A program made the position numbers and the translations under genes. Shown here piece by piece: positions 28,856 through 59,919 of a DNA stretch of 64,000 bases. This DNA is from Pseudoalteromonas gelatinilytica. GTDB lineage: Bacteria; Pseudomonadota; Gammaproteobacteria; Enterobacterales; Alteromonadaceae. The notes under the pieces were generated by a model that was not told where the DNA came from, searched no databases, and worked only from the letters and a program-made list of their open reading frames with translations. The stretch's first letter is position 1. Every line of letters starts with the position of its first letter. The DNA lies in assembly GCF_001641615.1 (NCBI RefSeq), contig NZ_LRRU01000017.1, positions 124,001 through 188,000 of the forward strand, given 5' to 3'.

Positions 28856-28857
28856 CG

Positions 28858-28868: not shown

Positions 28869-29068
28869 TAAAAGACTTAAAACCAATACTGACTGTAGCT
28901 AGCAAACAGTTCTGATGCATTGATTTAAGAAAGATGGGCACGTGTTTCTGAACTAAAGTTAAGTATGCACCAAAAGTGCGTACTTAACTTATAACGTTTG
29001 TAATTACCAATTTAATTGCTCACTTCATTAACTAGCAAACTTCTAAGACATTATGTTTTTTGGCTAGT

Positions 29069-29973: not shown

Positions 29974-30029
29974 TTATTTTACCTTTACCAATAAATTATC
30001 ATTAATGAATATGCGACATATCGAAAATA

Positions 30030-39313: not shown

Positions 39314-39533
39314 TTTTTATTCCTCCAACGATATAGTTATCTAGAGGTCCCGAGCCATCACCCTCGACGAGCCACTCCAAAAAGTTGCCTATCGGGTCCT
39401 CAACCCATCTATAAAATCTATAGAAAGCCAAGAGTTTAGTAAGCCATTTACATGGCTTGACTAGATGTTTAACGACTTTACGTCGCTTTATTCGGGTCTG
39501 TTCTTCTTTGCTTGGGTCGTCTGTATTAGACAT
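39267..39533 (-). CDS. Small retron accessory protein
   Basis: The 88-residue protein has a basic N-terminus (TRIKRRKVVKHLVKPCKW) followed by aromatic, amphipathic sequence (AFYRFYRWVEDPIGNFLEWL). There is no clear membrane helix. It lies between the msr-msd RNA and the RT, overlapping the RT start by 47 bp in another frame, so the two are translationally linked. Retron effectors are often encoded here, so it is a candidate toxin or effector; I do not recognise the family. Confidence 0.7.
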   Translation of the reverse strand: MSNTDDPSKEEQTRIKRRKVVKHLVKPCKWLTKLLAFYRFYRWVEDPIGNFLEWLVEGDGSGPLDNYIVGGIKTENTEPLSQRTIALI

Positions 39534-39567
39534 AACTTTATCCTCATGGTTACCGGGGCGATTGCCA

Positions 39568-39693
39568 CCGTCTCACTCGTAACTTAAGGACGGGAGAAAA
39601 GAACAGTTTTTATCCTCCAGATTCCAAGACCGTTCGTTTCTCACCGAACGGCCTGCACGTCATTCATTGATACATGTCATACGAGTAATACGG
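39568..39693 (-). ncRNA. Retron msr-msd RNA
   Basis: The arms CCGTATTACTCGTA (a1, 39680-39693) and TACGAGTGAGACGG (a2, 39568-39581) pair over 14 positions with one mismatch and one G-U pair. They enclose about 98 nt with two hairpins: CCGTTCG/CGAACGG (39630-39651) and GGAG/CTCC-closed (39593-39618). It lies directly upstream of the accessory gene and RT on the same strand, the standard retron layout. The branching G and msd boundary cannot be fixed by eye. Confidence 0.72.
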
Positions 39694-39843
39694 CGACACG
39701 AAGAACGGATAAGCGCGCAAAGGGTTAGGGTTTTATCCCTTCGGAAACTAACGTTTCCCAATAGTATGAGATTATTCCCGCTTTCCAAGTAACATCATTA
39801 TGGGGGGCGTTTGTTTATTAATCAATACAAGGGAGTTAAATTT

Positions 39844-39877
39844 CTCTAACTCATTTTTGGACAAAAATGAGTTAGAG
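39844..39877. terminator. Perfect 15-bp inverted repeat
   Basis: CTCTAACTCATTTTT and its complement enclose a 4-base loop between the kinase operon and the retron. Both strands carry T5 or A5 in the arm, so it may terminate the kinase operon, but no classical T tail follows. Confidence 0.5.
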
Positions 39878-39962
39878 CCAACGGGCGGCTCAATACAATT
39901 TCATAAGGTGGTAACGCTCTTATTAGATATTAGACCTCGCCTCTTTTAGGCTTAAGCTGAGT

Positions 39963-43436: not shown

Positions 43437-43437
43437 A

Positions 43438-45696: not shown

Positions 45697-45705
45697 TTTA
45701 CTTCC

Positions 45706-46974
45706 TTATGCGTTAAGTAGTTCATACCACTTATCTAAACTGTAATCATAATTTGGCATCACAGTATTCCAAACCGCAATATTCGAAAACCGTTTAATAT
45801 AACTGCCACCATCCCTTATTTCGCCTGCTTTAATAGATACTTTTCCATCTGTTCCCTTCAAGTCAGTTGACGCTTCTTGTCCTTCATACCAATAGTTCCA
45901 CTCAGGTTTAGACATAAGCGGTTGGCTACGACTAGGGTTAGAAATGTAATATCCTTGCCTTGCTATAAATGCACCTGGGTAGCCAGATAACCACCAGTTC
46001 ATATACTCATACGCAGCATCTTTAACATGCCCATGGGTATTTTTTGATAAACACATAACTCCATGCCATGCTCTGTAACCTTCTTTTGGCGATGCATAAG
46101 TTACTGGAATGCCTTGCCCATTTAGCGCACTGACACCTGGTGAGAACATACTTTGAATGGTCACTCGGTTCATTTTCATAAAATCAACCGATTGCGGTAC
46201 TGACGTCCAAAAGCCTGAAAAATGACCTTGGCGTTTCTTTTCAAATAAAACGGCAAATAATTGGTCAATCTCGGCAATAGTCATATTGCCGAAATCATTA
46301 AATTTCATTAATCCTTTAGCTTGAGCAGCGAGAGCAGCGTCAAAAATGCCTATTGTTGGTGCATTGACTAATGCTACTTTCCCTCTATTCTTTTCATCTA
46401 ATAACCATGCCCAAGATTCTGTTTCGTAAGGAATGCCTTTTTCAATAACATTCGTGTTATAGCCAAATGAATCGACATTATGTACATAAGGCATGAAGCT
46501 AATTAATTTGGATGGTGTTTCTCCTAACGAACCATCCGGCTGTGCATAAAGAAGCTTATTTGGTGAATCGCCTGCACCTAACTTTGCATCCGGTACAATT
46601 TTGCCAGTCTTGGTAAGCGGGTTTATTTCATCCCAATAAACGAGTCTATCAACCTCGATTGGCTGGATTGCATCAGCTTGCCACAAAATATTAATAGAGT
46701 CAGACCATTGTTCATACAAATCAAAAGAGCTAGGGTCTGCTGCTGCTTTTTGCAAAACTGAGGCACTACCCATAGGTGAAAACTCAATGTTTATACCTAG
46801 TTCGCGCATTGCTCTTTGTCTAAGCTCTTCTTGCAACGTAACATGTGTTCCCATTACACGAAGGGTTACTTTGTTCTTTGCAAAAACATAAGGGGCTTTA
46901 AACGCAAGTGTTGATGCCGCAGCACCAACACCGAGTGTTTTTAGAAAATCTCGACGCTTTTGGGAATGTTCCAT
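45706..46974 (-). CDS. Tat-exported ABC-type solute-binding protein (polyamine/sugar-type)
   Basis: From the ATG at 46972-46974 the protein is 422 residues with the twin-arginine signal KRRDFLKTLGVGAAAST followed by AFA-type cleavage near residue 32. The fold pattern (LRVMGTHVTLQEELRQRAMRELGINIEF; SWAWLLDEKNRGKVAL; EYMNWWLSGYPGAFIARQGYYI) is that of group-D binding proteins such as PotD/PotF. No ABC permease or ATPase is nearby; instead two sensor kinases follow, so it is probably a signalling receptor, by analogy with LuxP-LuxQ and NspS-MbaA. The ligand is unknown. Confidence 0.85.
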   Translation of the reverse strand: MEHSQKRRDFLKTLGVGAAASTLAFKAPYVFAKNKVTLRVMGTHVTLQEELRQRAMRELGINIEFSPMGSASVLQKAAADPSSFDLYEQWSDSINILWQADAIQPIEVDRLVYWDEINPLTKTGKIVPDAKLGAGDSPNKLLYAQPDGSLGETPSKLISFMPYVHNVDSFGYNTNVIEKGIPYETESWAWLLDEKNRGKVALVNAPTIGIFDAALAAQAKGLMKFNDFGNMTIAEIDQLFAVLFEKKRQGHFSGFWTSVPQSVDFMKMNRVTIQSMFSPGVSALNGQGIPVTYASPKEGYRAWHGVMCLSKNTHGHVKDAAYEYMNWWLSGYPGAFIARQGYYISNPSRSQPLMSKPEWNYWYEGQEASTDLKGTDGKVSIKAGEIRDGGSYIKRFSNIAVWNTVMPNYDYSLDKWYELLNA

Positions 46975-47058
46975 TGTATTTCTTGGTAAGTTAACAATCT
47001 CCAAAGTATAGGCTATGTTCCTGAGGTTTCTACAAAAAGCAGTAAAAAAAAACCTAAA

Positions 47059-47982
47059 TCAATCACAAAAACTAAGCCTAAAACAGTTTCGCCCATCACT
47101 TTTAGCCGCATAAAGCGCTTTATCTGCGCAATTAATTAGCTCATCAAAGCTCACCTTATTTTGATGCTCATAGATAACCCCACCGATACTGACTGTCGCG
47201 CGGCCCCAAATAGACTTAACATGCGGGATATTAATCGTCTCAAGCTCAGTTGATATACGGTCACATATGAATTTAACACCTTCGAAGTCAGTGTATGGCA
47301 GTATGATAAGAAACTCCTCGCCACCATATCGTATTGCTATATCTTGAGGTCGTTGAATAGAACGTTCAATAACATCAGCAATTAGTTTCAGGCAAGCATC
47401 TCCTTGCGGGTGCCCGTATTGATCGTTGTATAACTTAAAGAAATCTAGATCAAGCATTAGCAAACTGAACGGTTTCTTCTCTCTTGAAGTTTGTTTAAAA
47501 ACATTAGCAACTTCAAGGTCTAAATAGTGACGGTTAAATAAGCCTGTCAATGAATCTTTATAGGTAAGCTCTATTAGTTTTTCTAATCGAAGTTTATTCT
47601 CTAAATGATTTTTCGTGCGGTGTATCAATGTCGATGCAGTAATAGGTTTACCAATAAAATCAGAAGCACCAGCTTCCCAGCATGCATTTTGGTATTCCGT
47701 GTCGTAAGTCGAAGTGATGAAAATTATTGGGATATTTTCGAATTTAGCTTTAGCCTTAAGTCGCCTACAAATATCCAGACCACTTATATCCGGCAAATTA
47801 ATATCTAGTAAAATCAAATCTGGAAGTAAATCCTCACAGGCTTCTAAAACAGCCTGACCAGAAGAGTATGCATCCACGGAAAAATGATCTTCTAAAATAA
47901 CTCCTAAACTTAGCCTTACCATCTCATCATCGTCAACGATGAATACTTTACATTGTGATAAGGGCTTTAAACTTAAGGGCAT
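47059..47982 (-). CDS. Response regulator with GGDEF diguanylate cyclase domain
   Basis: The 307-residue protein has a REC domain (VFIVDDDEMV, ILLDINLPDISG; phospho-Asp about residue 59) and a GGDEF domain with YGGEEFLIILP, an active-site variant found in working cyclases. The RxxD inhibitory site is not obvious. It should make c-di-GMP when phosphorylated. It overlaps the upstream REC-PAS-GGDEF-EAL gene by 10 bp and is followed by the solute-binding protein after about 85 bp. It was probably built to receive phosphate from the kinases of the same operon. Confidence 0.92.
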   Translation of the reverse strand: MPLSLKPLSQCKVFIVDDDEMVRLSLGVILEDHFSVDAYSSGQAVLEACEDLLPDLILLDINLPDISGLDICRRLKAKAKFENIPIIFITSTYDTEYQNACWEAGASDFIGKPITASTLIHRTKNHLENKLRLEKLIELTYKDSLTGLFNRHYLDLEVANVFKQTSREKKPFSLLMLDLDFFKLYNDQYGHPQGDACLKLIADVIERSIQRPQDIAIRYGGEEFLIILPYTDFEGVKFICDRISTELETINIPHVKSIWGRATVSIGGVIYEHQNKVSFDELINCADKALYAAKSDGRNCFRLSFCD

Positions 47983-50084
47983 AATATTCCTTCAGCTTTA
48001 CTGGTTTGAATTAGATTACCAGCGTTCTCGAAACTCAATGGCTTACTAAGTAAATAACCTTGGCCTATTTGACAGCCAAGCTCTTGCAATCGTTCTTTTT
48101 GCTGTAAAGTTTCAATCCCTTCAGCCACAATTTGGAGCTTTAAAGAATGAGCTAGTTCAATTATAGTCGTTACAATATTGAGCGCTTGCTCATCGTTAAG
48201 CATATCATGTACAAAAGACTGATCTATTTTTAGTATATCTAGTGGGAACAACCTTAAATATGAAAGGCTGGAATACCCAGTTCCAAAGTCATCAAGAGCA
48301 ATACTGACACCCATACTAGAGATAAGCTTTAATTGACTTACAGTATAATCAAAATTTTCAATCAAGGCCGATTCTGTCACTTCTAATTCTAAATAACGGC
48401 TAGGTAATTGCGTTCTTTCAAGAATCTCAGCAACAGTATCTACAAGTTTAGTATCTGTGAACTGTTTAGCAGATATGTTTACTGCAACTTTAATAGGGAG
48501 ACCTTTATCAAGCCAATTTTTTGCAGCAATACAGCTTTTTTCTAGAACTTGTTCTCCTAAGCGAAAAATAAGCCCTGTCTCCTCGGCATATTCAATAAAA
48601 TGAACTGGAGAAATAAAGCCGCCTTGCCCATCTTTTAAACGAACTAAACTTTCTACACCAATAAGTGTGTCAGTGTTTAAATCATATTTAGGTTGGTAAT
48701 GAACGTCGAGATCATCTTCATCTAATGCCTTTCTAAGTTTATTTCCAACCTCAAGGCGTCTATTCATTTCAATCTGTAAATCGTCACTAAAGTAAAAGTA
48801 ACTATTTGCAGATTCATTCTTAGCTTTATACATTGCAGAGTCTGCATGACGAAGCATCTCTTCAACGCTTGAAGCATCGTCGGGATACACACTTATACCT
48901 AAACTTGCTGTAAGCACATGTTGTTCACCACCAGACCTGAAAGGTTTGCTAATAACATTGAGAACTTGATTAACAAGAGGCTCTAGGCTTAATGAGTTAG
49001 CTGAATGAGGAACAACGAGTGCAAACTCATCCCCACCAACACGTGCGACAGTAATATCGTTACATGCAAATAAATCTAAAGTATGACCAATATGGGCAAT
49101 TATCTCATCACCAACGTGATGGCCTAATGCATCATTAATAAACTTGAACTTATCTAAATCAAGTAACATTAAACTTAATTTAGAGTCATTAAATTCTGCT
49201 CTGGCTATGCCTTGCGTGAGTCTATCATGCAGTAGCACTCGATTTGGTAGTGAGGTCAATTGATCATGATGAGATAAATAAGTCATCTGCATAGACATAG
49301 CTAAAGCTTCGCTTACATCTTGAAACACCATAACAGCGCCGCATTGATTATGGTTTTTATCAAGGATAGGAGCTGCGCTGTCTTCAACTCGATGTTCAAT
49401 TCCTTGCTTACTTATTAGTTGCGTATTTAAAGCCATAGCAACAGGTCTATTTTCATTTAATGCAACGACTAATGGGTTAATTGATGAAGCTTTGGTCGTA
49501 GCATCGACTAACTTCATCACCTCTTCAATATGGCGACCTTTCGCTGCTGTTTGTGACCACCCTGTAAGTCTTTGCGCTACAGGGTTCATATACACAATAT
49601 TTGCCTTTTTATCAGTAGAAATAACAGCATCAGCAATCGAGTCAAGAGTGATTCTCAACTGTTCCTTTTCAGCAAAAAGTTCTGCTTGAGTCTGTTGCAA
49701 TATCTTTTCTTGTGACCTGATTTTTATATGATTTTCAATACGAATTCGACATAGTCTGAGGTTTAAGGGTTTTGAAATAAAGTCTATCGCGCCAAGAGAC
49801 AATGCTTTTTCTTCTATCGCAGGATCACTGTGAGACGTAATAACAACAGTTCTAATATGTGCCAGAGTAGACTTTTTCTGTATGACTTCTAAAATATCAA
49901 AACCACTGACTTTAGGCATTTCTAAGTCAAGAACTAAGATATCAGGCTTAATTTTTTCTATAAGTTGTATAGCCTCGGAGCTATTGTTAGAAGTTGTAAT
50001 CTTACCAACATCCTCTAGGGCATGCTCTAACTGTAAGGTATTAATTTCTTCATCATCAATGATTAGAACGCTGCAATTGTCCAT
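47973..50084 (-). CDS. Response regulator with PAS, GGDEF and EAL domains (c-di-GMP turnover)
   Basis: The 703-residue protein has a REC domain (LIIDDEEIN, ILVLDLEMPKVSG), a PAS domain (SIADAVISTDKKANIVYMN), GGDEF (VGGDEFALVVP, intact) and EAL (GVESLVRL, with ESL in place of EAL, then DDFGTGYSSL and KIDQSFV). The catalytic Glu and the metal-binding Asp residues remain, so both activities are possible. It is the first gene of the signalling operon, starting at 50084 with GGGAAAC upstream. Confidence 0.92.
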   Translation of the reverse strand: MDNCSVLIIDDEEINTLQLEHALEDVGKITTSNNSSEAIQLIEKIKPDILVLDLEMPKVSGFDILEVIQKKSTLAHIRTVVITSHSDPAIEEKALSLGAIDFISKPLNLRLCRIRIENHIKIRSQEKILQQTQAELFAEKEQLRITLDSIADAVISTDKKANIVYMNPVAQRLTGWSQTAAKGRHIEEVMKLVDATTKASSINPLVVALNENRPVAMALNTQLISKQGIEHRVEDSAAPILDKNHNQCGAVMVFQDVSEALAMSMQMTYLSHHDQLTSLPNRVLLHDRLTQGIARAEFNDSKLSLMLLDLDKFKFINDALGHHVGDEIIAHIGHTLDLFACNDITVARVGGDEFALVVPHSANSLSLEPLVNQVLNVISKPFRSGGEQHVLTASLGISVYPDDASSVEEMLRHADSAMYKAKNESANSYFYFSDDLQIEMNRRLEVGNKLRKALDEDDLDVHYQPKYDLNTDTLIGVESLVRLKDGQGGFISPVHFIEYAEETGLIFRLGEQVLEKSCIAAKNWLDKGLPIKVAVNISAKQFTDTKLVDTVAEILERTQLPSRYLELEVTESALIENFDYTVSQLKLISSMGVSIALDDFGTGYSSLSYLRLFPLDILKIDQSFVHDMLNDEQALNIVTTIIELAHSLKLQIVAEGIETLQQKERLQELGCQIGQGYLLSKPLSFENAGNLIQTSKAEGILCP

Positions 50085-50286
50085 TTAAGTTTCCCGCAAT
50101 ACTTTGTACCTACTTACAATAACGCTAAAACAGTAAATTTGCGACACACTTTTTTATTAGTCTTAAAATATTATTTTTTGTATATTAAACTGGTATTTTT
50201 GAAAGCATTAGCTAGTTTTTAATTAATGTGTAAGTAATACATATTAACTATGTAATAAAACAAAATGGATAATTTAGGGAGGAATT

Positions 50287-50493
50287 TTGAAACATTATTA
50301 CATTAACGATAACGCCCAAAACACAGGTGAACATGAGGTACATACAGAGTCATGCCCGTACTTCAACTTGATAACAGACCGCACTTATTTAGGTTTCTTC
50401 CATAGTTGCAAAGATGCAGTAGAGAAAGCAAAAACCAAATATTCAAATGTTGATGGTTGTAAGCATTGTTGCTCGCTTTGCCATACTCGATAG
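50287..50493 (+). CDS. Small Cys/His-rich protein
   Basis: The 68-residue protein has a TTG start with a very strong GGGAGG 6 bp upstream. It contains ESCPYFNLI, FHSCKDAVEKAK and the C-terminal CKHCCSLCHTR, five or six Cys plus His that could bind zinc or iron. No longer frame includes an ATG. I do not recognise a named family. It is divergent from the signalling operon (about 200 bp apart). Confidence 0.7.
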   Translation: MKHYYINDNAQNTGEHEVHTESCPYFNLITDRTYLGFFHSCKDAVEKAKTKYSNVDGCKHCCSLCHTR

Positions 50494-50506
50494 AGAAATT
50501 TATAAC

Positions 50507-50549
50507 TGAGAGACTGACTTGATTTAGTCACATTGTTCAGTCTCTCTCA
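50507..50549. terminator. Inverted repeat between convergent genes
   Basis: TGAGAGACTGA and its complement form an 11-bp stem with a 20-base loop between the small Cys-rich gene and the chemoreceptor-like gene. There is no T tract, so the call is tentative. Confidence 0.4.
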
Positions 50550-50565
50550 AGTTGTGATAGCTAAA

Positions 50566-51865
50566 TTAAAGGTTTGTTTTAAATTGGCCTACAGCCTCAA
50601 CGACTTCTTTTGCGCCTTTTTGAATGTCATCGATTACATTACCTGCACTATTAGATAAATCCAAAGCATCTTTGGCTTCTACTAGGCTAGATTCAATTTG
50701 GGTTACAGCGTCCTGAGTAAGTACTTTGTTTTCTGCAACCACACTAATTATTTGCTCTGTAGCTAAACTCGTTCTTGATGCTAATTGTCTTACTTCGTCT
50801 GCGACAACTGAAAAACCACGTCCTTGCTCACCCGCTCTTGCAGCCTCTATTGCAGCATTAAGTGCTAATAAGTTTGTTTGATCTGCTATTCCTTTAATAC
50901 TTTCAACCAATTGAGAGACTTTTGCTGATTGTACATCAAGTTTATTAATGCCTTCGCTCGCAGTTTCAAGTTTCTTAGAAAGCGCATTCATAGTTGAGAT
51001 AGTTTGCTTTACAACACCTAAACCATTTTCTGCATCAGAGTCCGTTTGTTTTGAGATATCGTAAGCAATGCCAGCTGTTTCTGAAATAGCTTGCTCTCTT
51101 CTCATTTGTTCTGTAATGACAGTCGCGAACTTAGCAACTTTATATAAATCTCCATTTTCATCATGAATAGGGTTATAAGAAGCTTCAAGCCATACTTCAT
51201 TGCCATAACTATCTATTCTTTTAAAGCGGTCAGAGATAAAGCGCCCCCCCTTTAACTCTGACCAAAACTCTTTGTAAGAATTTGAATTTGCTTCTTCTGG
51301 ATCGCAAAAGATACTATGGTGCTTACCTAGTATTTGGCTTTTAGAGTACCCCATTGCATTTAAAAAATTATCGTTAGCACTCAGAATTATTCCATCTAGA
51401 GTAAACTCGATTACAGCAGATGAACGACTAAGAGCAGCAAGCATATCTTCTTTCTCTCTCGAATGAGAGATAGTGCGAGTGAGCTCAGATGAGAAAATAG
51501 CTATATCTTCATTTACAGGTTGAACAATGCTTCTAAGCCACAATTCTCTATCAGTTTTCGTTTTTAACTGTAAAGCACCATGCCAATGGTTAGTTTTCTT
51601 AAGTGCTGACAAGAATTTTTGTGTATGAGGTTTATTTAATGACTTTTTTAAGATCAAGCTTTCAATGCTTGCCCCTTTTAGATCCTCAACTTCAATTTCG
51701 ATTGCCGCAGCAAAACGATGATTTGCTTCTAAGATATGCCCACTTTTACTTAATAAAAAAATACAGCATCTCTTCTTTCAGTTCCTGCTTAATATTTTCA
51801 TACTCGGCAGTTTGCTCTTTCAGATAAGCAATTTCAGATAACAATTTTTTATTTGTAAACCACAT
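50566..51865 (-). pseudogene. PAS-PAS methyl-accepting chemotaxis-type protein, frameshifted at A7/T7 run
   Basis: The 3' frame (from 51657) encodes PAS ([20 protein letters not shown]) and the MCP signalling domain ([32 protein letters not shown]). Upstream, from the ATG at 51863-51865, the frame reads MWFTNKKLLSEIAYLKEQTA and runs into a stop just after the T7 run (51755-51761). Removing one T joins it to [19 protein letters not shown], the rest of a first PAS domain. So the intact gene would be a soluble BdlA/Aer-like two-PAS receptor of about 433 residues. Either real inactivation, a sequencing indel, or slippage. Confidence 0.85.
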
Positions 51866-52215
51866 TTGGGGTGTTTCCCTTAAGAGTCAACTCAAAATTT
51901 GAGTGTTAAGAATCAATAGTTTAGACAGTAGATACTAAAAGTAAAGATATGACAGATTAAGGGCTCATATTATCACTTCAACTGGCCTTCAGTACGAAGT
52001 TAGTGAGCAATTGGATCTTTATGTTAGTTCATAAATAAGAGAGGTTATGTAAATAACCTGTTTCTCTGTAATCTGGTTTGAGTGTCCCTCCCATCACTTT
52101 TATCCAAGATTAAAGTGCATGTGCGTAAGAATCAAAAATTGTCTTTAACGCCCCCCAAAGAGGCAGATCACTCTAGCGCATTTCTGGACATAAATGTGTC
52201 AGCGTATTTATTTGG
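51866..52215. other. Non-coding stretch, possibly a second decayed recombination site
   Basis: No ORF with an RBS is visible. On the minus strand GGGGGGCGTTAAAG near 52150 resembles the 3' end of an integron-type site, but its partner arm is not convincing. Confidence 0.3.
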
Positions 52216-52310
52216 TAACGCCTTGTATAGAGGCAAAAAATTGCTGGCTAAAATTAGCTACGAAGGAGCAAAAGCCAACTGTTTTTTGTCCTTTTAAACG
52301 ACTTATTATA
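52216..52310 (-). repeat. attC-like integron recombination site
   Basis: On the minus strand it begins TAATAAGTCGTTTAAAAGGAC, then GTTGGCTTTTGCTCC, TAGCTAATTTTAGCCA and ends GCCTCTATACAAGGCGTTA, with inverted arms (ACAGTTGGCT vs AGCCAGCAAT) as in attC sites of Shewanella/Vibrio-type integrons. It directly follows the stop of the HEPN gene, where a cassette's attC belongs. Confidence 0.6.
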
Positions 52311-52311
52311 T

Positions 52312-53004
52312 TCATGTTTCTACTACAAAAGTTTGATCGTTAACTTTGCTTATCGCAATTCCCAAAAAGTTACCCACTACTTCAACAAGTTCTTTAATCA
52401 AAAGATTATCTGTAATGTGAAAGTCCCATGAGTCATAATTTATCTCAATACTCGAAAAGGTCGCTTTGAGGGCTTTTGCATTTTTTGCTAAAGCACTAGA
52501 GTTGTTTCCTTTTACTCGAGAATTTGAGTGGACTATTTGATTTCTTAGTTGTTGGAACTCACATATACGGTCATATAATTTTTTCTCTTTTTTAAGGTCA
52601 ATGTCGCAGGTGAGTTCAATGTACCTAATTGATTTCCTAATTAAGTTATTGTCGCTAAGATCTTTTAAACTTAATTTACTGTTTGTACAATTTTTTATCT
52701 CTTCACTCAGGTGTGACAGAGAACTTTCGAGTAAAGTATAAACAAGCACTATTGAAGAATGATAAAAATAACTTTTTAGCTTTGTTATTTCTTTATTGAA
52801 TAAATCGACCAAAATTTCTTCGTCATCAGGGCGGCTATCAATATCAGAGGCCATATTCTCTTCTAAAGCATCGCCTTTTTCAGATATAGCTTCACTAATA
52901 TCTACTACATAACTCCGTAAATATTTTAGCTCGTATTCAGTTCGCTCTTTAAAGTTAACTAAATCAATTGATTTTTCTGTAAATGAATTCTTTTTAGTTA
53001 GCAT
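52312..53004 (-). CDS. HEPN-type hypothetical protein
   Basis: 230 residues from the ATG at 53002-53004; the frame continues upstream to a GTG at 53070, but that lies inside the attC-like site. The protein is helical with LRNQIVHSN near the middle-end, the Rx4H motif of HEPN RNases. No membrane helix. It reads as a single integron cassette. A toxin or defence RNase is a fair inference; the partner antitoxin is not adjacent. Confidence 0.65.
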   Translation of the reverse strand: MLTKKNSFTEKSIDLVNFKERTEYELKYLRSYVVDISEAISEKGDALEENMASDIDSRPDDEEILVDLFNKEITKLKSYFYHSSIVLVYTLLESSLSHLSEEIKNCTNSKLSLKDLSDNNLIRKSIRYIELTCDIDLKKEKKLYDRICEFQQLRNQIVHSNSRVKGNNSSALAKNAKALKATFSSIEINYDSWDFHITDNLLIKELVEVVGNFLGIAISKVNDQTFVVET

Positions 53005-53047
53005 ACGATGGCTTATAGAATAGATATAACGATCTATTAAGGTGTGA

Positions 53048-53147
53048 GCAACGCAAATAAGCCTCCGCACACCATCTTAATAACGAAAATCAACGCATAA
53101 TAAAAATACAACGCGTTGCGGATCACTCTTGAACAGTTTGTTATAAA
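53048..53147 (-). repeat. attC-like integron site (VCR-like)
   Basis: The minus strand begins TATAACAAACTGTTCAAGAG, then CAACGCGTTG at the same spacing (18 nt after TATAACAAA) as in Vibrio VCR sites, followed by TTATGCGTTG and a 3' half with TGCGG and GCGTTG. It starts 4 bp after the DUF2806 stop. The left half matches well; the 3' half is diverged. Confidence 0.5.
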
Positions 53148-53150
53148 TAC

Positions 53151-53984
53151 TTATTTCAGTTCTTTTACCTTGCGAGCCATTAGCTGTGATCTGCTTATCA
53201 AGATCTCGTAGTATTTTTCACATGGTTTAACGTCAATGAAGCGATAGAGCTCTCGTCCAGCTTTAGTTAGAAACTCTGTTCGATTTTCACGATGACCTTT
53301 CAGTGTCATTGCAAACTTATAATTACTATATTCAATTACATATCGCTCATTCTTGGTAAAGTGGAATTGTTGCTGAGGTTGTACCAAACCAAGATCTTGA
53401 AGGTGACGAATGTCCGCCTCTTGTATCCCTTGATTTTCGATATGCTTGTTAAGAGATGAGTATTTAAAACGCAACAACTCACCGTTAACTTGAAAAAGGA
53501 ACTGACAGTAACGATTAAATAACTTTAGATCATTATTACTCAGAGATTGAAGGACAAGCAATGTAGCTCTACTACACGCTTCTGGCTCTAAAACCTCACC
53601 GGCAAGTATTTTAGCCCAAAGTTCTTGGACATTTTCAATAGAAACATCTTGGCACTTATCAAAATAAAACGACAACCAATCCACATCTATAGTTACACCA
53701 TCGGCAATATCATTATTCTCAAGGAAGTTAATTGACTTATCAACTATACCCTCAATATTTTCTTGTCGGCGCGTCTCTTGCGTTGAAATCCGTCTAGCAG
53801 CTCTGAGAGCAAGTGCGTCAGACTCTCCTTTAGCCATAATAACAAGCGTATCAGATTCGGCCCTTGCTTTTCTGCGAATCCTTGTAGGCTCATACAAAAC
53901 GCCAATTGTGTTACTCACTGCATCAATCAACTTACATGCAGGTTCAGATAGAGCTTTTAAGTCGATTAGACTAGTTTCTGTCAT
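53151..53984 (-). CDS. DUF2806 protein
   Basis: From the ATG at 53982-53984 (GGTGAAAG upstream) the protein is 277 residues. The N-terminal part (LSEPACKLIDAVSNTIGVLYEPTRIRRKARAES) and the middle VQELWAKILAGEVLEPEACSRATL are the DUF2806 pattern. The C-terminal part may contact DNA or protein (HLQDLGLVQPQQ). There is no catalytic motif and no signal peptide. DUF2806 proteins often occur in mobile and defence loci; the function is unknown. It is followed directly by an attC-like site, so it looks like a cassette gene. Confidence 0.78.
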   Translation of the reverse strand: MTETSLIDLKALSEPACKLIDAVSNTIGVLYEPTRIRRKARAESDTLVIMAKGESDALALRAARRISTQETRRQENIEGIVDKSINFLENNDIADGVTIDVDWLSFYFDKCQDVSIENVQELWAKILAGEVLEPEACSRATLLVLQSLSNNDLKLFNRYCQFLFQVNGELLRFKYSSLNKHIENQGIQEADIRHLQDLGLVQPQQQFHFTKNERYVIEYSNYKFAMTLKGHRENRTEFLTKAGRELYRFIDVKPCEKYYEILISRSQLMARKVKELK

Positions 53985-54382
53985 TGTGCTTTCACCAAGT
54001 ATCGATTGCCGTGTATTTATAACAATTTTATAGTGCACGCGTCGCGCATCTTTCTGCCAATGTCACGCTCATGTATTAATAAATGTATTAGTAACAAATA
54101 ACATAACGCATTACCAATTCTAATTTTTATTGGTACTAAAGATATACAAAAAAGAAAATGCGCTCGTCGCTCAGTTTCTTGAATATGGGAGCACTACAAT
54201 AAAACTGTATATTAATACTGTTATTTATGTCATCACCAACATAAAAGTTAGTGCAATATCAGATTATGGAGTAGAGCCAATATCAATAGGTGAATCACTG
54301 TATCTGATAGCTCAAAGGTAATCTATAGAGTAATTACGTTAACTCACTTTGGGGCACGAGTTATATTTAAAACCCGTCTGTG
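53985..54382. other. Gap without a recognisable gene
   Basis: AT-rich sequence. A 63-codon frame exists on the plus strand but its TTG start lacks an RBS and I do not support it. An inverted repeat TAACTC/GAGTTA lies near 54342-54366. No attC is convincing here. Confidence 0.3.
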
Positions 54383-54416
54383 AAAAAAAATGGCTTAGAT
54401 TTGCCACTTAAGCCAT
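54383..54416 (-). terminator. Terminator of the LA2681-like HEPN gene
   Basis: ATGGCTTA/TAAGCCAT hairpin followed by T8 on the minus strand, about 110 bp after the stop at 54526. Confidence 0.75.
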
Positions 54417-54525
54417 GCTGTTATGGTAAGTTGTGAAAAAGCACATGTGTCTACTGAGTCGATGACGATTTAATAAGTGATTCAGCCATACTTTCCTAAA
54501 ATGAATATTTATAGGATACAATGAT

Positions 54526-56256
54526 CTACTTCAAAGGTACTTCGATAGGCATCATCACTGCACCATTATCAGGCTTATTTTTCTCTTCTACGTGGATTGC
54601 AAGTGAAAGGTACATAATCGAATTTCGAGCGAGCTTCATCAACGTCATGAGCCTTGATTCAAATTCACTCTCTTTTATCAGCACAGAATGACTTGAAAGC
54701 TTTTGGTGCTCATAAATTTTTGACTGTGCTTGACGCAAACCTTCATCAAGTAATTTTTTTTTGGTCTCTAGTTCGGCTTTAAGAGTTATATTATGAGCCT
54801 TTTTCGCCAAAGCAATTTCACCATACAGCTCTTGAAGCTGTTCTTCAAAGTCATTTATACCACCATTAAGCTTTTCAAGCTGTGATTGCTTAAAAGCTTT
54901 ACCTGATTGAATTAGGGTATAACCAAAATCATCAACAATCTTTAAAGAACAATGCTCTATAGCATTTCTAATTTCAGAAAATGCCTTTGCATCAGGATCA
55001 AGCCACCGACTAACAGAAGTCGAGTCTTTCACATCTCGAATGTCTTTCAGGATGTAGAATAAGGCATGGATAAAGCAATTCTGACTATCTTTAAGCTTAC
55101 TGTGTGGTTTCCAGCTCTTACTGCCTTTCAGCTCACTAAAAATACTGTCAAAGCTGATTTTATGATCATACTTGATATCATTCAGATCAAAAAAGCGATT
55201 GATAAAGTAGGCAATTTTATCAAATATCGAGTAAAGTGTTCTGAACGCGCTTTTAAAATGACTAGCTTTTAGATTGGTAATGGAGTGTGACATATCATCA
55301 ACGTGAGGATATGTTTTGTTGAAGAAATGTGTATGGTCACTAGGTATGTTTCTAGCCGAAAAAATTAAATAACGCGCATAGCAATAATCGTTCTTTAATT
55401 CATCGAAGTTCCCATGATACATAAGCTCTTCATGCATCGATAAAGCGAAGTTTATTTGTTGAGAAAAAGAGGGAAGGACCATAATGTCTTGATAGACAAT
55501 TTCAGATACGCAAACGTCATTTAAGTCATTGATAAAAAGCTTGTTATCTCCACACCACTTTAAATATTCACCTTGCTTTCTTGTCTCAACTTCTTCTTCA
55601 AATGACTCAAAATAGTCAAAGTCTTCTGGTTCAAAAGTATCTTCAAACCATGCTTTAAAATTCATAAAATTGCTGTTTTCTGAATAAGCAATTCTTTGCT
55701 CAGGATGGAGTTGTTCAATACTTTCAAGACCTAAATTAATGAGTAGGTATGCAGTATAGTAATGGTAGTGCTTATGACTAGGATCGTAAACATTGCTCGC
55801 AAGAAAAAGCTCATTGTTTGCTTTAGATATTATAGTCACTGGGTTTTGTATGCATGTAAAGGCATTATCCCAGAATGGAATACAGCAGAAGGCACGACCT
55901 TGAGAACTTAGATAATTGCCTAAATTGGTTTCAATGCAACTTTGGAGAAAAAGTTCTTCGTCAGTTGGAGAGTCGATTTTTCGTATGACGTATAGAGCTT
56001 TTCTGAAAAATATAACGGATTTACTTAGTTCATCAGAAAACCAATCTAGTTTATGGTAGTTAAAAATCGCTACTGAACAATTACCCAATATATAGCAAAA
56101 ACGAGCTTCATCAACGAGACTTTCAAACTTATAATCAACGCCCAACAACGATTCTAAGAACGTTTTAATCTTTTCATGATCATTAGCTATCAAAAACTCA
56201 TCAGCCTTCATTGACAGCTCTTCAAGAGCACTTGAATTCAAGACATCTTCTGACAT
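54526..56256 (-). CDS. LA2681-like HEPN domain protein with TPR-like N-terminus
   Basis: The 576-residue protein has helical repeats at about 1-180 (DELFLQSCIETNLGNYLSSQGRAF and others, TPR-like). The middle (SHFKSAFRTLYSIFDKIAYFINRFFDLN) and FSEIRNAIEHCSL carry the HEPN fold with the RNAIEH (Rx4H) motif at about residue 445. A coiled coil (about 480-530) follows. LA2681-like HEPN proteins are predicted RNA-targeting defence or stress proteins; no activity is proven. It is monocistronic with its own terminator. Confidence 0.75.
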   Translation of the reverse strand: MSEDVLNSSALEELSMKADEFLIANDHEKIKTFLESLLGVDYKFESLVDEARFCYILGNCSVAIFNYHKLDWFSDELSKSVIFFRKALYVIRKIDSPTDEELFLQSCIETNLGNYLSSQGRAFCCIPFWDNAFTCIQNPVTIISKANNELFLASNVYDPSHKHYHYYTAYLLINLGLESIEQLHPEQRIAYSENSNFMNFKAWFEDTFEPEDFDYFESFEEEVETRKQGEYLKWCGDNKLFINDLNDVCVSEIVYQDIMVLPSFSQQINFALSMHEELMYHGNFDELKNDYCYARYLIFSARNIPSDHTHFFNKTYPHVDDMSHSITNLKASHFKSAFRTLYSIFDKIAYFINRFFDLNDIKYDHKISFDSIFSELKGSKSWKPHSKLKDSQNCFIHALFYILKDIRDVKDSTSVSRWLDPDAKAFSEIRNAIEHCSLKIVDDFGYTLIQSGKAFKQSQLEKLNGGINDFEEQLQELYGEIALAKKAHNITLKAELETKKKLLDEGLRQAQSKIYEHQKLSSHSVLIKESEFESRLMTLMKLARNSIMYLSLAIHVEEKNKPDNGAVMMPIEVPLK

Positions 56257-56623
56257 ATAGCGCGCCGTTAAGTTAATTTCACATCATACTAACGCATTGG
56301 GAATTAGTATTCATTTTATATCAATAAGTCACATATGCTAATGGTCTAAACTAGCTAAAAATGTCATTCTCACTATGTCTGTGGCTTAAGAATTCAGCAA
56401 CATTATGCTACCCCAATCCTGTTGAATCGTTAATGACATTACGAAAAGTAAGTCAAGTGACGATTTGGCTAAGCAAGTTCTCAATTGGTCGCAACACACT
56501 TTGGGGCAATAAGAACACTGCCTGCGTTACATCAACAATCGGTTTCTCTCGATATTTTAATCGCGTCTTCAATCTCTATTCCCAAATATCTCAGCGGAAA
56601 ATTTGACCGACAACAGCGCCTTA
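56257..56623. other. Non-coding stretch between Shedu and LA2681 genes
   Basis: No supported gene. A plus-strand frame of 81 codons (56361-56606) is open but has no RBS. ACTAATTCCCAATGCGTTAGT near 56280-56320 (minus strand) looks like a short palindrome ending in GCGTTAG, reminiscent of an integron arm, without a convincing partner. Confidence 0.3.
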
Positions 56624-57748
56624 TTAAGTACGATCACCTTTTAATCTCAGCAGCATATCACTCCCTCTTTCCAAAAGATCTTCATAGGTTAAGACCTTAA
56701 TTTTACCGCTGAAGAATATATTTCTTCTACGTAATCTCTCTTTATCTAACTCAGACAAGCTATCCCGTCTGCCAATAACGACAAAACCTGACGGTGAATA
56801 AAGACCATTTAACGAAGTTCTTGCGTATGGGTTGTTTTTATCAATCCAGTCTAGCCAATCCAATATCTGTTGCTCTGCATGCACGAGATGACTAGTTGGA
56901 TTACCAACCTTTGTATATAACTTGAGATTTGATGATTCAAGTTCCACCACATCACATGAACCATCATATTTCTCGAGCGCATAATCTGTTTCGTACTCTC
57001 CACCTAAGCGGTGCTTGGGTATAACTCGCTTATATTCAAACCCGAATAATATGGGGTTTCTGGATAAATGTGCCTGTATAGAGTTTTCATTTCGTTTTTC
57101 AGACTCTAACAGTACTGTGAACTCATCAATTGCCAACTGTAAACTCAGTAGCAATCGATCTGCGCTTTCTAGATTCGAAAGTTCTTCCTTGATGGTTTGT
57201 CTAATAATAGAAATATCAGATGGGGAGTAATGTTTTTCAGGGTCTATACTAGATAATAGCTTTTTTGCACTTTCGAACTCATCAGATTGTCGAGACGTAA
57301 GACGATATCTCTCACCTTGAAGTTTGAAGCCACCCTCAATCATCTTGCGGTGTAATATAGCTAGTTCATCCTCGCAATCGGGAGTGTTTGGATAAACTGG
57401 GACTTCAGATATCGCAGCTATGGCTAAAGTACTTAGAATATCTTCCTCATAATCTTCTTCTAGAATTTGATCAAGAAGATGACAAACTTCCATCTCTCCA
57501 CGTTCTATATTGAATGAAAAGCATATAATGTGAATAGTTCGTTTACCGCCTTCATTAGAATAAATTAGCTCTTTTGCAATATTTATTAGATCAAAATTGT
57601 TCATTTTGGGACTATCATCATCCTCAATCTGTTGAGAATGAATAACATTTGCAAGTTCTTTATTTTCTCCTGTGAGAATCGTGAGCCTACGCTGTCCGTC
57701 TTTCCATTTATCTAATCTACTCACCGATACTCCCTGAGTACTTAACAT
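56624..57748 (-). CDS. Shedu anti-phage nuclease SduA-like (DUF4263)
   Basis: The 374-residue protein has an N-terminal domain (1-150) of unknown fold and a helical linker. The C-terminal DUF4263/PD-(D/E)xK domain (about 225-370) has LGGEYETDYALEK (about 248-260), DVVELESS (266-273) and HAEQQILDWLDWI (290-302), the spacing typical of Shedu. The ExK position reads ELE rather than EIK, a variant also seen in part of the family, so catalysis needs testing. Single-gene Shedu systems protect against phage. Confidence 0.82.
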   Translation of the reverse strand: MLSTQGVSVSRLDKWKDGQRRLTILTGENKELANVIHSQQIEDDDSPKMNNFDLINIAKELIYSNEGGKRTIHIICFSFNIERGEMEVCHLLDQILEEDYEEDILSTLAIAAISEVPVYPNTPDCEDELAILHRKMIEGGFKLQGERYRLTSRQSDEFESAKKLLSSIDPEKHYSPSDISIIRQTIKEELSNLESADRLLLSLQLAIDEFTVLLESEKRNENSIQAHLSRNPILFGFEYKRVIPKHRLGGEYETDYALEKYDGSCDVVELESSNLKLYTKVGNPTSHLVHAEQQILDWLDWIDKNNPYARTSLNGLYSPSGFVVIGRRDSLSELDKERLRRRNIFFSGKIKVLTYEDLLERGSDMLLRLKGDRT

Positions 57749-58320
57749 TTTAGTATTTATGCGACACGCAGTCTGTGTTGCATAATCGCTTGTTGGACTG
57801 AGCCGCTACCTGCTCGGTGTGTAAGAGTTGTTGTTGTTTATGCTATGGTAATTAGTTTTTTGGTGACTCTCACTTTCCTAACTAATTTAATCAGCTTAGC
57901 TAGTGTTATGTAAGCTTTCCCTGCATTACTCATCCTTTATTATTTTTCTATTACACCTAAGTATAGCTAGATAAGCAACTATATTTTTTGCACGCATATT
58001 GGTTTCCAGACTGAGCTGAAAAATAGGTTAACCCATTGATTTTACTTAGCTAGAAAGACAACTAAGTCATTCGCAATATTTTTTGTCGCTACATCTAAAT
58101 TCATGCAACAAGTAATGCTTATTGCAACACTTAGCTGTATTTAGAGACTTTGTTAACCCTTAGCCACACAAACGATGTGAGGAAGGCGACCCTCCTCGAA
58201 TATAAACACCTACCATTGGTCATGCAACTCTGTCAGATTTAATCGGTGCCACATAAATCAAACCTGACAAAACGGTAATTAAAAATAAAAAACCTATTTA
58301 TAAATAATTATTTAAGCTTC
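57749..58320. other. Gap without a recognisable gene
   Basis: AT-rich sequence, many short stops in all frames; no RNA or repeat structure stood out to me. It presumably contains the promoter of the Shedu gene. Confidence 0.3.
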
Positions 58321-59199
58321 TTAGATAAAATGCAGATGTAGTTTATGTCTGACTGCGCTTGTTACATCTGAAAGTTCTATTTTTGATTTATTATCAAAGT
58401 GAGCATCCTCTATAATAGTTATGAAATTACCACTCAGACTATCGATAAAATCACTGATTAAGCTCGTATCAACAACAAAGTGAAAATTATCACACATAAA
58501 GTAATCACTTAATGCATCTGTAATAATTTCTCTTATTAAAAAAAGATCATCACTTGTAGTTATATGAAATTGTAAATACGCTGATATTTTTTTGATAAAT
58601 TCATAATTGTTAATACGAAACTCTTCTAAAACACGCTTGTTTGAAATCTCATTTTGCTTTGTAATTGTAGAGTAAAATATCTCATCACTTTGCCGAGAAG
58701 CTTGTCCTGAAATGTGAAGTGCAATATTCACAAAAGTTTTTGCGCATTCATAATTTGAAAACCTCACACTATCTATTTCCCTGTAGCCAGCAACATTTTT
58801 TTGGATAAAACCAACTGTGCCTTGACCGTTACTTATCAATGAAAGATTTCGGTTTTCTTTCAGCACTGAAACTAGTTTAAAACAGTTCTTGTCAACTTGT
58901 TCGAGGAAAGGTTTTATTGTAGCAGCAATAAGATTTGATGCTGATGAAAAGCTTAACTTTCTATTCTTATGACGAAACTTTTCACATAATTTTTCTGCAT
59001 TTAACTCAAAGTATTTCACTTTATTTTCGAGAGATGCATGAAGAGATGAGTAATTTTTATTTGCCAAAAACTGCGCCCATGGATCAAAGCTTTTACATTT
59101 TGACTTTATTCCGATACCAATACTTTTGGTATTTTCATAAAAAGACTCAGCGGTTAATTTGAGTAACTCTGTAGTAAAAATCATAATTTTTCTCAGCAT
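58321..59199 (-). CDS. Unrecognised protein, candidate new cargo/defence gene
   Basis: The 292-residue protein has no signal peptide. It is helical throughout, with basic patches (KSKCKSFDPW, EKFRHKNRKLSF) and a hydrophobic core segment near 145-175 (FVNIALHISGQA). I recognise no motif. ATG at 59199 or the in-frame ATG at 59184; neither has a strong RBS. It is the last protein gene before the replacement tRNA, in the region where GMT islands store cargo. Its start faces the right end, and it has no operon partner. Confidence 0.65.
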   Translation of the reverse strand: MLRKIMIFTTELLKLTAESFYENTKSIGIGIKSKCKSFDPWAQFLANKNYSSLHASLENKVKYFELNAEKLCEKFRHKNRKLSFSSASNLIAATIKPFLEQVDKNCFKLVSVLKENRNLSLISNGQGTVGFIQKNVAGYREIDSVRFSNYECAKTFVNIALHISGQASRQSDEIFYSTITKQNEISNKRVLEEFRINNYEFIKKISAYLQFHITTSDDLFLIREIITDALSDYFMCDNFHFVVDTSLISDFIDSLSGNFITIIEDAHFDNKSKIELSDVTSAVRHKLHLHFI

Positions 59200-59418
59200 C
59201 AGACATAGGAGGTCGTTTAAGCAGCTAATGCATTAAAAAATGATTTGGACTTAGTAATATTGAGATATTTGATGATGGTCGACCACAACCAAGTCAGTTA
59301 AATACTGCCTTCGAATGCTAGTTATATTAGCACTGTCCCAAAAGCATAGTAAAAAATAGGAATAAAAAAATCAAGAGAGATATTAGAGGTAATTGAATCT
59401 TTAATATTAAAGATGAAA

Positions 59419-59737
59419 TGGTGGCCCCTCCCAGACTTGAACTGGGGACCTAACGATTCTGGTTACCCACTACTTTCGTAATGGCCTGGACTATATCATC
59501 ACCCTAGATAACTTTATCTGTGGGGTGTCGGACGCTAATGATGTATTACACAGCAAGTTCGTGCTGAACCATCTAGTCTCTGAACCTTCTCCAAACGCTT
59601 TTGGAGCTTGGCTGCTGATTAGCATGTTTAAATAAACGAAGCCTTCCAGCAATTCATCCGATTTTCCATATGCCATTACTGACATAGGTCACAATTTCTT
59701 ATGAGTCGTGTGCTCTAACCAACTGAGCTAAGGGGCC
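59419..59737 (-). tRNA. tRNA-Ile2(CAU) replacement gene with group I intron
   Basis: Exons give a 77-nt tRNA: GGCCCCTTAGCTCAGTTGG at the 5' end, anticodon loop CTCATAA, T arm CCCAGTTCAAGTCTGGG, encoded CCA. It matches the E. coli tRNA-Ile2 pattern, whose C34 becomes lysidine (by TilS), so it should read AUA. The gene is split after CAT by 242 nt (59459-59700). Exons are identical to the two halves of the disrupted host copy. It lies 115 bp inside the right island end. Confidence 0.93.
59459..59700 (-). ncRNA. Group I intron (IC3-like) in tRNA-Ile2
   Basis: Conserved core on the minus strand: P (GAATTGCTGGAAGGC, 59641-59655), Q (AATCAGCAGCCAAGCT, 59605-59620), R (TTCAGAGACTA, 59574-59584), S (ATATAGTCC, 59488-59496), and terminal G at 59459. 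P7 is GACTA/TAGTC. GTG at 59690-59692 is the internal guide pairing with CAT of the 5' exon, ending in the usual U-G pair. The segments and the insertion site (CAU|AA) match the Azoarcus tRNA-Ile intron. There is no homing-endonuclease gene. Confidence 0.92.
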
Positions 59738-59776
59738 AAATTTTCATTTTAAGTATGCACTTAAAGATAAGTGGGA

Positions 59777-59805
59777 ATACTAACGGAATTACCGTTTAAC
59801 TTCAA
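59777..59805 (-). promoter_or_regulatory. Possible promoter of the replacement tRNA-Ile2
   Basis: TTGAAG and TAGTAT with a 17-bp spacer, ending about 40 bp upstream of the tRNA 5' end on the minus strand. It is within the island. Read-through from the original host tRNA promoter is an alternative source of transcription. Confidence 0.45.
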
Positions 59806-59851
59806 GGCATTGCACCTTTTCTTTGCCCTTATAAGTACACACCAAATTCTT

Positions 59852-59862
59852 ATACCACATAA
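59852..59862. repeat. Right terminal inverted repeat of the island
   Basis: ATACCACATAA, the inverted complement of TTATGTGGTAT at 28858-28868, directly abutting the 5' part of the host tRNA. Confidence 0.85.
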
Positions 59863-59919
59863 GAACTGGGGACCTAACGATTATGAGTCGTGTGCTCTAA
59901 CCAACTGAGCTAAGGGGCC
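59863..59919 (-). pseudogene. 5' part of the split host tRNA-Ile2(CAU), intron-less
   Basis: The first 57 nt of the tRNA, GGCCCC... through the anticodon loop ACTCATAATCG to CCCCAGTTC, identical to the exons of the replacement gene but without an intron. The 3' end is replaced by the island. Its own promoter, if intact at the right side, would now transcribe into the island. Confidence 0.92.

What the first reader, a model, noticed from the sequence alone, without database searches (positions are those of the whole stretch)
59419..59737. Island-borne tRNA-Ile2(CAU) gene interrupted by a group I intron
The gene has the group I core elements P, Q, R, S, a terminal G, and an internal guide GTG that pairs with the 5' exon CAT. 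Insertion after the anticodon of tRNA-Ile(CAU) is the same as in Azoarcus. The exons equal the host tRNA. The host copy (59863-59919) had no intron, so the intron arrived with the island. Group I introns in tRNA genes are described mainly in cyanobacteria and alpha/betaproteobacteria; a copy on a gammaproteobacterial mobile element that makes a functional tRNA depend on self-splicing would be unusual.
Basis: partly seen in the sequence, partly recalled or inferred. Interest (0 to 1): 0.9.

Follow-up and report, generated by a model that had tools for sequence, protein, structure and literature searches.

The report
Island-borne self-splicing replacement tRNA gene
A 31-kb mobile island has cut this bacterium's own isoleucine-tRNA gene in two and carries a complete copy interrupted by a predicted self-splicing intron, so the cell likely depends on that intron removing itself to read the AUA codon.

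Summary
Window 59419-59737 (-) is a complete tRNA-Ile2(CAU) gene with a 242-nt group I intron after the anticodon (Rfam 93.5 bits). The joined exons equal the native tRNA of two same-genus genomes (77/77). The gene lies 125 bp inside one end of a 31,007-bp island (28856-59862) that split the host's intronless tRNA-Ile2 in its T-loop; those two genomes show the empty site. No other intact tRNA-Ile2 was found.

Islands usually restore the tRNA they enter through attP. This one shares only GTTC with its target and brings a separate, intron-bearing replacement. Three relatives (and a fourth locus whose integrase was not seen) do the same with tRNA-Ile2, others with tRNA-Arg(UCU). Elements with other recombinases (gamma-mobile-trio-like; XerA-like) also carry intron-bearing replacement tRNAs.

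The recurrent pairing of tRNA-breaking elements with intron-bearing replacements is. Splicing, expression and dependence are untested. Why the replacement keeps an intron is open; a shield against re-integration is contradicted by one nested insertion.

The parts
59419..59737 (-). replacement tRNA-Ile2(CAU) gene with encoded CCA, interrupted by a group I intron
   Evidence: exons joined give one 77-nt tRNA, identical to the native tRNA of G012 and G001
59701..59737 (-). 5' exon, ends ...GACTCAT
   Evidence: sequence
59459..59700 (-). group I intron, 242 nt; longest stop-free stretch 65 codons, so no room for a usual homing endonuclease
   Evidence: no ORF of 100 aa or more overlaps it
59689..59692 (-). 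internal guide GUGA pairing with UCAU at the end of the 5' exon (P1)
   Evidence: invariant in the 6 aligned genes
59419..59458 (-). 3' exon, starts AATCG; AAU may pair with AUU just before the guide (P10, read by eye)
   Evidence: sequence
59738..59862 (-). 125-bp island end between attR and the tRNA; possible weak promoter TTGAAG-17-TAGTAT (59805-59777), by eye only
   Evidence: the promoter scan reported none here
59863..59919 (-). orphaned 5' 57 nt of the host tRNA-Ile2, ends in T-loop GTTC
28832..28855 (-). orphaned 3' 24 nt of the host tRNA-Ile2, begins GTTC
28856..59862 (.). integrative element, 31,007 bp
   Evidence: empty sites in two same-genus genomes; the flank matches overlap by 4 bp; GC fraction mostly 0.33-0.40 against 0.38-0.46 outside
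28856..28867 (+). attL arm CGTTATGTGGTA
   Evidence: inverted repeat with the attR arm
59851..59862 (+). attR arm TATACCACATAA
36590..37954 (-). tyrosine integrase, 454 aa
   Evidence: Pfam Phage_integrase 48.5 bits; R231, K276, H354, R357, H388, Y397 invariant among 10 aligned sequences
33328..36597 (-). 1089-aa protein, distant relative of GmtZ, likely a second tyrosine recombinase
   Evidence: R525, H725, R728, Y760 invariant among 4; weak Phage_integrase E 0.066; hhalign to GmtZ-like proteins 91.9%, E 7e-7
32649..33347 (-). 232-aa protein, third member of the module
   Evidence: relative in G613; no family
32192..32656 (-). 154-aa coiled-coil-like protein of the module
   Evidence: relatives in G613 and G551
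30030..32195 (-). RecD2-like helicase of the module
   Evidence: TIGR01448 348.6 bits, cut-off 500; relatives in G613, G551, G180, G498, G526, G419, G213
29527..29973 (-). Xre/ParS-type antitoxin-like protein
38417..39229 (-). cargo: retron-type reverse transcriptase
   Evidence: PADLOC RT_VI 273.2 bits
54526..57748 (-). cargo: HEPN protein (54526-56256) and Shedu SduA (56624-57748)

Best explanation
This is a complete tRNA-Ile2(CAU) gene, interrupted by a predicted self-splicing group I intron, that a 31-kb integrative element carries beside the host gene it has split in the T-loop, and after splicing it likely replaces that gene as the cell's only AUA-reading tRNA. Shown from sequence: the host gene is cut at GTTC into a 57-nt 5' piece and a 24-nt 3' piece at the two ends of the island; two relatives hold the uncut intronless gene; the element shares only GTTC with its target and so does not restore it; a whole second tRNA gene lies 125 bp inside one end; its exons equal the native tRNA; the intron has the group I core and covarying helices; no other intact tRNA-Ile2 was found. 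Inferred: the element's tyrosine integrase made the insertion; the replacement is transcribed from an island promoter; the intron removes itself with guanosine; TilS then modifies the tRNA to read AUA; loss of the island other than by precise excision would be lethal. The intron itself is most likely an old passenger of a mobile tRNA-Ile2 cassette whose kin are on related islands and in a jumbo phage.
For: Intron and exons. Empty site: of 21 genomes searched with the left flank (the window's own included), G012 and G001 hold all of it; flanks 93/96% and 87/94% identical, 4-bp overlap, intact tRNA identical to the spliced product. Single copy; of 7 genomes (checked), 6 show only the cut copy and the intron copy. 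TilS present, 185 bits. The integrase and the 1089-aa protein recur in G613, G551 and G437, the RecD2-like gene in G613 and G551. Island introns are 81-86% identical to the window's, although integrases share 30-45% with it; native introns 50-56%; jumbo-phage intron 71%. A compensatory change in the acceptor stem and three in the T stem among the copies point to selection on the tRNA.
Against: No splicing, transcript or excision data. The promoter scan found no promoter between attR and the gene. A tRNA-Ile(UAU) gene was not searched for. The genome is in 23 contigs and has runs of N (one lies in a tRNA-Met-like gene), though it is rated 100% complete. RecD2 was not found in the stretches read of G437. 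Whether the intron is only a passenger is an inference.
Confidence: 0.85

Rival explanations
1. The intron is there as a shield: by interrupting the replacement tRNA it would destroy the attachment site inside the element's own copy and stop the integrase from cutting it.
For: In other element types the host tRNA is broken in or beside the anticodon arm, near where the intron sits: Paraglaciecola G706, tRNA-Leu in G026, GMT-like elements G080 and G384. Intronless Arg(CCU) replacements in G180, G249 and G346 have the T-loop core GTTC changed to GATC; those of G249 and G346 are nearly the same sequence. Introns found in tmRNA genes all lie in the T-loop, though the authors warn of a search bias (PMC11915505, passages), and islands often use the tmRNA gene.
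Against: In the window's own element type the cut is in the T-loop, which the intron leaves intact. In G169 a second element has inserted into the T-loop of an intron-bearing replacement tRNA. The inner G169 replacement has neither intron nor altered T-loop.
Confidence: 0.12
2. The intron acts as a control: splicing, sensitive to GTP or folding, would set the supply of the AUA-reading tRNA or signal the island's state.
For: Single functional copy found; strong conservation of the intron over very diverged integrases.
Against: Replacements without introns exist in related elements; introns at the same site are common in native genes. No search for a regulatory domain beyond Rfam was made.
Confidence: 0.07
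3. The copy is dispensable or dead, and AUA is read by another tRNA.
For: A tRNA-Ile(UAU) was not searched for.
Against: Exons identical to the native tRNA; paired changes in tRNA and intron stems among relatives; no other intact tRNA-Ile2 found.
Confidence: 0.05
4. An ordinary tRNA-integrated island whose attP restores the target, or an assembly error.
For: Islands in tRNA genes are common (PMC4383910, passages).
Against: The junctions share 4 bp only, and the host 5' piece runs into island sequence. The same build recurs in four other genomes.
Confidence: 0.03

Closest known systems
Native group I introns in tRNA-Ile2(CAU) of proteobacteria
   Same: Same gene and same site after the anticodon; Ile2 introns in Acidovorax and Burkholderia are noted in PMC8450103 (passages); 17 gammaproteobacterial loci here. 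Azoarcus is recalled as the type case; its pre-tRNA-Ile intron is named in passages of PMC3984707.
   Different: The 17 have no cut tRNA upstream, and their introns are 50-56% identical to this one.
Genomic islands in tRNA genes (Islander principle)
   Same: Tyrosine integrase, split tRNA gene, tRNA fragments marking both ends.
   Different: PMC4383910 (passages) describes an attP that contains a tDNA fragment so that integration restores the gene. Here only GTTC is shared, and a separate whole gene stands in.
Gamma-mobile-trio (GmtY, GmtX, GmtZ)
   Same: Integrase related to GmtY-like proteins (hhalign 97.9%) and the 1089-aa protein to GmtZ-like ones (91.9%). Two GMT-like elements also carry intron-bearing tRNA-Arg.
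   Different: The window integrase scores 59 bits against the GmtY cut-off of 340; GmtX and GmtZ models do not hit; a RecD2-like gene is part of the module.
Group I introns in tmRNA genes
   Same: Self-splicing introns in a tRNA-like gene that islands target.
   Different: Those sit in the T-loop (PMC11915505, passages), this one at the anticodon.
tRNA-Ile2 with intron in Klebsiella phage Muenster
   Same: Same gene and site; intron 71% identical, grouping with the island introns.
   Different: In a tRNA cluster of a jumbo phage; no integrase is annotated in the 3-kb stretch read.

Membership tests
Group I intron (RF00028) | Score above Rfam's gathering score over the whole model | tested here: met
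   93.5 bits against 50, model 1-253
Group I intron (RF00028) | P1 with U.G at the 5' splice site, P3-P8 core with P7, terminal G | tested here: met
   P7 GACTA/TAGTC invariant in 6
Group I intron (RF00028) | Self-splicing with guanosine | not testable with these tools
   needs in vitro transcription
Group I intron, subgroup IC3 (Azoarcus type) | Subgroup features and similarity to the Azoarcus intron | not tested
   no Azoarcus sequence fetched
tRNA-Ile2(CAU) | Spliced product folds as tRNA with CAU and equals the native gene | tested here: met
tRNA-Ile2(CAU) | Lysidine at C34, decoding of AUA | not testable with these tools
   TilS gene present; modification not observed
tRNA-integrated genomic island | Tyrosine integrase and split tRNA gene | tested here: met
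tRNA-integrated genomic island | attP carries the tRNA 3' part and restores the target | tested here: not met
   only GTTC shared; both host pieces stay orphaned
Gamma-mobile-trio | GmtY, GmtX, GmtZ above NCBIfam cut-offs | tested here: not met
   GmtY 59 of 340 bits; no GmtX or GmtZ hit; distant homology by profile only

The most novel reading that the evidence does not exclude
Several different kinds of integrative element in marine gammaproteobacteria break essential tRNA genes beyond repair and bring self-splicing, intron-bearing replacement tRNAs, making the host dependent on an element-encoded ribozyme for translation; the intron is kept for a reason that serves the element.
Probability: 0.3. 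Interest if true: 0.82.

Novelty: new variant of a known kind. Interest (0 to 1): 0.66.

Why it matters
If true, it is a clear case of a mobile element taking over a likely essential tRNA gene and tying the host's reading of a codon to a ribozyme the element carries: a form of addiction that needs no toxin. The pairing of tRNA-breaking elements with intron-bearing replacement tRNAs recurs with three tRNA identities (Ile2, Arg, Leu) and at least three recombinase types, so it can be tested why introns accumulate there. It also matters for annotation: ARAGORN in its default mode reported no tRNA-Ile2 in the window, and island finders that expect a restored target would likely misread these ends.

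Tried and rejected
Shield against re-integration: attractive, but contradicted for the T-loop family by the nested insertion in G169. The window island as a gamma-mobile-trio: model cut-offs not met; only distant homology. A second tRNA-Ile2: the other exact hit in the genome (C21) lies where ARAGORN finds no tRNA; the third near-hit (C13) begins like tRNA-Met and has a run of N in its 3' half. The same intron in E. coli genomes: none; plasmids: only a 39-nt exon match in 2 records; the integrase in plasmids: none. Automatic promoter search: nothing near the gene. The first attempt to count native Ile2 introns failed through a wrong search expression and was redone. Association of integrase family and intron in the same 394 genomes: 5 genomes have both, out of 8 and 12; Fisher p 5.5e-7, 1.1e-5 without the window's genome, but 0.08 when the three seed genomes found through introns are also dropped. 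The structure job on the 1089-aa protein had not finished at the last look, so no model is used. Paper searches listed nothing on intron-bearing replacement tRNAs on islands; I saw listings, and passages of six papers; the library holds open-licence papers only, and the original gamma-mobile-trio paper was not in its listing.

Full report
What is there. On the minus strand, 59737-59419 reads as tRNA-Ile2(CAU) with a 242-nt intron right after the anticodon. Rfam's group I model is matched from its first to its last position at 93.5 bits, and this is the only such hit in the 4.8-Mb genome. The 5' exon end UCAU pairs with the internal guide GUGA, with U.G at the splice site; the intron ends in G. 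Joined exons make one 77-nt tRNA. ARAGORN without its intron option misses the gene. The longest stop-free stretch in the intron is 65 codons.

Is it more than chance. Six intron-bearing tRNA-Ile2 genes, the window's included, were aligned. In the consensus structure plus P7, 98.8% of cells pair, and 24 of 94 pairs carry changes on both sides. Shuffles give a mean of 10.1, none of 500 reaching 24, and slid structures give 0 to 2. The two Vibrio introns are 99% alike, so the rows are not fully independent, and the structure was derived from the same rows.

The island. A direct repeat marks the 3' end of the host tRNA at 28832-28855. The 5' 57 nt of the host tRNA lie at 59919-59863. Of 21 genomes searched with the left flank (the window's own included), two others of the same genus, G012 and G001, hold all of it, and both have an intact intronless tRNA-Ile2 there. 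Their flanks match the window's at 93 and 96%, and at 87 and 94%, and the two flank matches overlap by 4 bp, GTTC. The island is therefore 28856-59862, 31,007 bp. GC is mostly 0.33-0.40 inside and 0.38-0.46 outside. The arms beside GTTC are inverted repeats (CCACATAA / TTATGTGG); G419 and G213 show the same plan with other arms. So the island does not rebuild the tRNA it cuts. It brings a whole copy 125 bp inside its end.

Single copy. The 11-nt anticodon motif occurs twice in the genome: in the cut copy and in a stretch where ARAGORN finds no tRNA. With up to two mismatches in a longer motif, 7 genomes were examined (checked). In 6 (the window's, G613, G551, Vibrio G437, Paraglaciecola G706, V. 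tasmaniensis G707) only the cut copy and the intron copy appear. The other hits there are tRNA-Met genes or places where ARAGORN finds no tRNA; one of these, in the window's genome, begins like tRNA-Met and is broken by a run of N. The seventh, an uncultured Ferrimonas, has an intact intronless tRNA-Ile2 on another contig and a broken one at a contig end, so its state is unclear. TilS is present in the window's genome. A tRNA-Ile(UAU) was not looked for.

The element family. The 454-aa integrase has the catalytic residues of tyrosine recombinases. The 1089-aa protein next to it keeps R, HxxR and Y among four relatives and is a distant relative of GmtZ. A RecD2-like helicase belongs to the module in most relatives read. 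With the window integrase as query, 295 genomes of the family gave 6 besides the window's: G613, G551 and G564 have an intron-bearing replacement tRNA; G180 has an intronless one; G498 breaks tRNA-Pro with no replacement beside the integrase (an intact tRNA-Pro(GGG) lies 12.6 kb further on); G526 has no tRNA there. Over all routes, 14 junctions of the form GTTC-TTA with a complete tRNA beside them were read, and 10 carry the intron: five Ile2 (window, G613, G551, G437, V. tasmaniensis) and five Arg(UCU) (G419, G213, G564, G266, G169 outer, whose T-loop the inner element has since cut). Four do not: G169 inner, and Arg(CCU) in G180, G249 and G346. Seven of the ten are the window or were found through the intron, so the fair figure is the one from the integrase alone: 3 of 6 genomes, or 3 of 8 if G249 and G346 are added. 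The integrase was not seen for V. tasmaniensis and G266, whose contigs end. In G266 and the outer G169 element the cut upstream tRNA is degenerate, by eye.

Other element types. G080 and G384 carry an intron-bearing tRNA-Arg next to a host tRNA-Arg cut near the D arm. At their far ends lie GmtY-like genes (294.5 and 298.1 bits against a cut-off of 340) and GmtX (44.9 and 57.1 bits, above its cut-off of 40), and in G080 a GmtZ-like protein (410.6 of 600, on a partial protein). G179 shows the same kind of junction by eye; its far end was not read. Paraglaciecola arctica G706 has an intron-bearing tRNA-Ile2 beside a host copy cut in the anticodon arm, and at the far end a tyrosine recombinase whose best model is XerA (48.5 of 220 bits). 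G026, of the window's genus, has an intron in tRNA-Leu(CAA) beside a cut tRNA-Leu; its recombinase was not identified. In 60 genomes of the genus only the window's and G026 have RF00028 hits.

How specific is the pairing. In 394 genomes of the order, 12 have RF00028 hits: 11 in tRNA genes and one in a tmRNA. Of the 11, 8 have a stretch matching at least 14 of the first 20 nt of the same tRNA within 300 nt upstream, and 6 at 16 or more. Of 25 class-level intron tRNAs called by ARAGORN among 29 loci, none reaches 14 (threshold set after seeing the values). The two tRNA cases in the order without any cut copy are tRNA-Arg(CCU) in two genomes of one genus. In the class-level sample (369 genomes, including a few of the order and the window's) 56 have RF00028 hits. 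Of the 29 new loci fetched, 17 are tRNA-Ile2 with the intron at the same site and no cut copy upstream. The integrase family was not found in the other 368 genomes of that sample at E 1e-25, although protein databases list relatives in Aeromonas, Pseudomonas and Ralstonia.

Where the intron comes from. Island introns are 81-86% identical to the window's, that of Klebsiella jumbo phage Muenster 71%, native gammaproteobacterial ones 50-56%. In a FastTree tree the islands and the phage separate from the native introns with support 1.0. The phage intron scores 104.1 bits and sits in an unannotated tRNA-Ile2. Two uncultivated virus contigs also carry intron-bearing tRNA-Ile2, read by eye.

How it most likely works. 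Inferred: the integrase recombines GTTC in the T-loop, orphaning both host pieces; the island gene is transcribed, the intron splices itself out, and TilS modifies the tRNA. Clean excision would restore the host gene; any other loss of the replacement would be harmful. The intron is most likely a passenger of a mobile tRNA cassette. A shield role is possible for anticodon-arm elements but unlikely for this one, since in G169 a second element has gone into the T-loop of an intron-bearing replacement.

What is known. PMC4383910 (passages) states the usual rule, restoration by attP. PMC8450103 (passages) reports 36 genomes lacking a detected fMet or Ile2 tRNA gene because of group I introns, and names Acidovorax and Burkholderia for Ile2. 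PMC11915505 (passages) finds tmRNA introns only in the T-loop. PMC3984707 (passages) says phage introns seen by 2014 were all in protein genes. PMC9897764 and PMC12595487 (passages) treat tRNA fragments and islands without such introns in the passages seen. None of the listed papers was seen to describe an intron-bearing replacement tRNA on an island.

Noticed in passing
L298 (Klebsiella phage Muenster, MT708547.1), about 1370-1680: Unannotated tRNA-Ile2(CAU) with a 231-nt group I intron (104.1 bits) in a jumbo-phage tRNA cluster; a 2014 review said phage introns were all in protein genes. ARAGORN does not call the spliced tRNA, perhaps because of its long D-loop.
   Followed up: partly
L301 and L305 (IMG/VR contigs): Two uncultivated viral contigs with intron-bearing tRNA-Ile2, read by eye.
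   Followed up: no
L296 and L297 (Vibrio phages 1.187.O and vB_VpaM_R16F): Terminase large-subunit genes split by three and four group I introns.
   Followed up: no
L207 (G169): Nested elements: a second element sits in the T-loop of the first element's intron-bearing tRNA-Arg and brings its own intronless tRNA-Arg.
   Followed up: partly
G180, G249, G346 (L182, L205, L206): Intronless replacement tRNA-Arg(CCU) with the T-loop core changed from GTTC to GATC.
   Followed up: partly
L022 (G073): tmRNA with a weakly scoring group I intron in the T-loop, a cut tmRNA 5' piece upstream and a LAGLIDADG-like frame downstream, by eye.
   Followed up: no
window 38417-39229, 54526-57748: Defence-like cargo: retron type VI reverse transcriptase, HEPN protein, Shedu.
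   Followed up: no
window 39963-51657: Sensor kinases, solute-binding protein, GGDEF/EAL and MCP genes as island cargo.
   Followed up: no
L161 (Planctomycetota MAG) and L165 (Verrucomicrobia MAG): tRNA-Ile2 5' halves that break off at the anticodon loop, perhaps other insertions, by eye.
   Followed up: no
window 14756-14857: TPP riboswitch, 74.7 bits.
   Followed up: no
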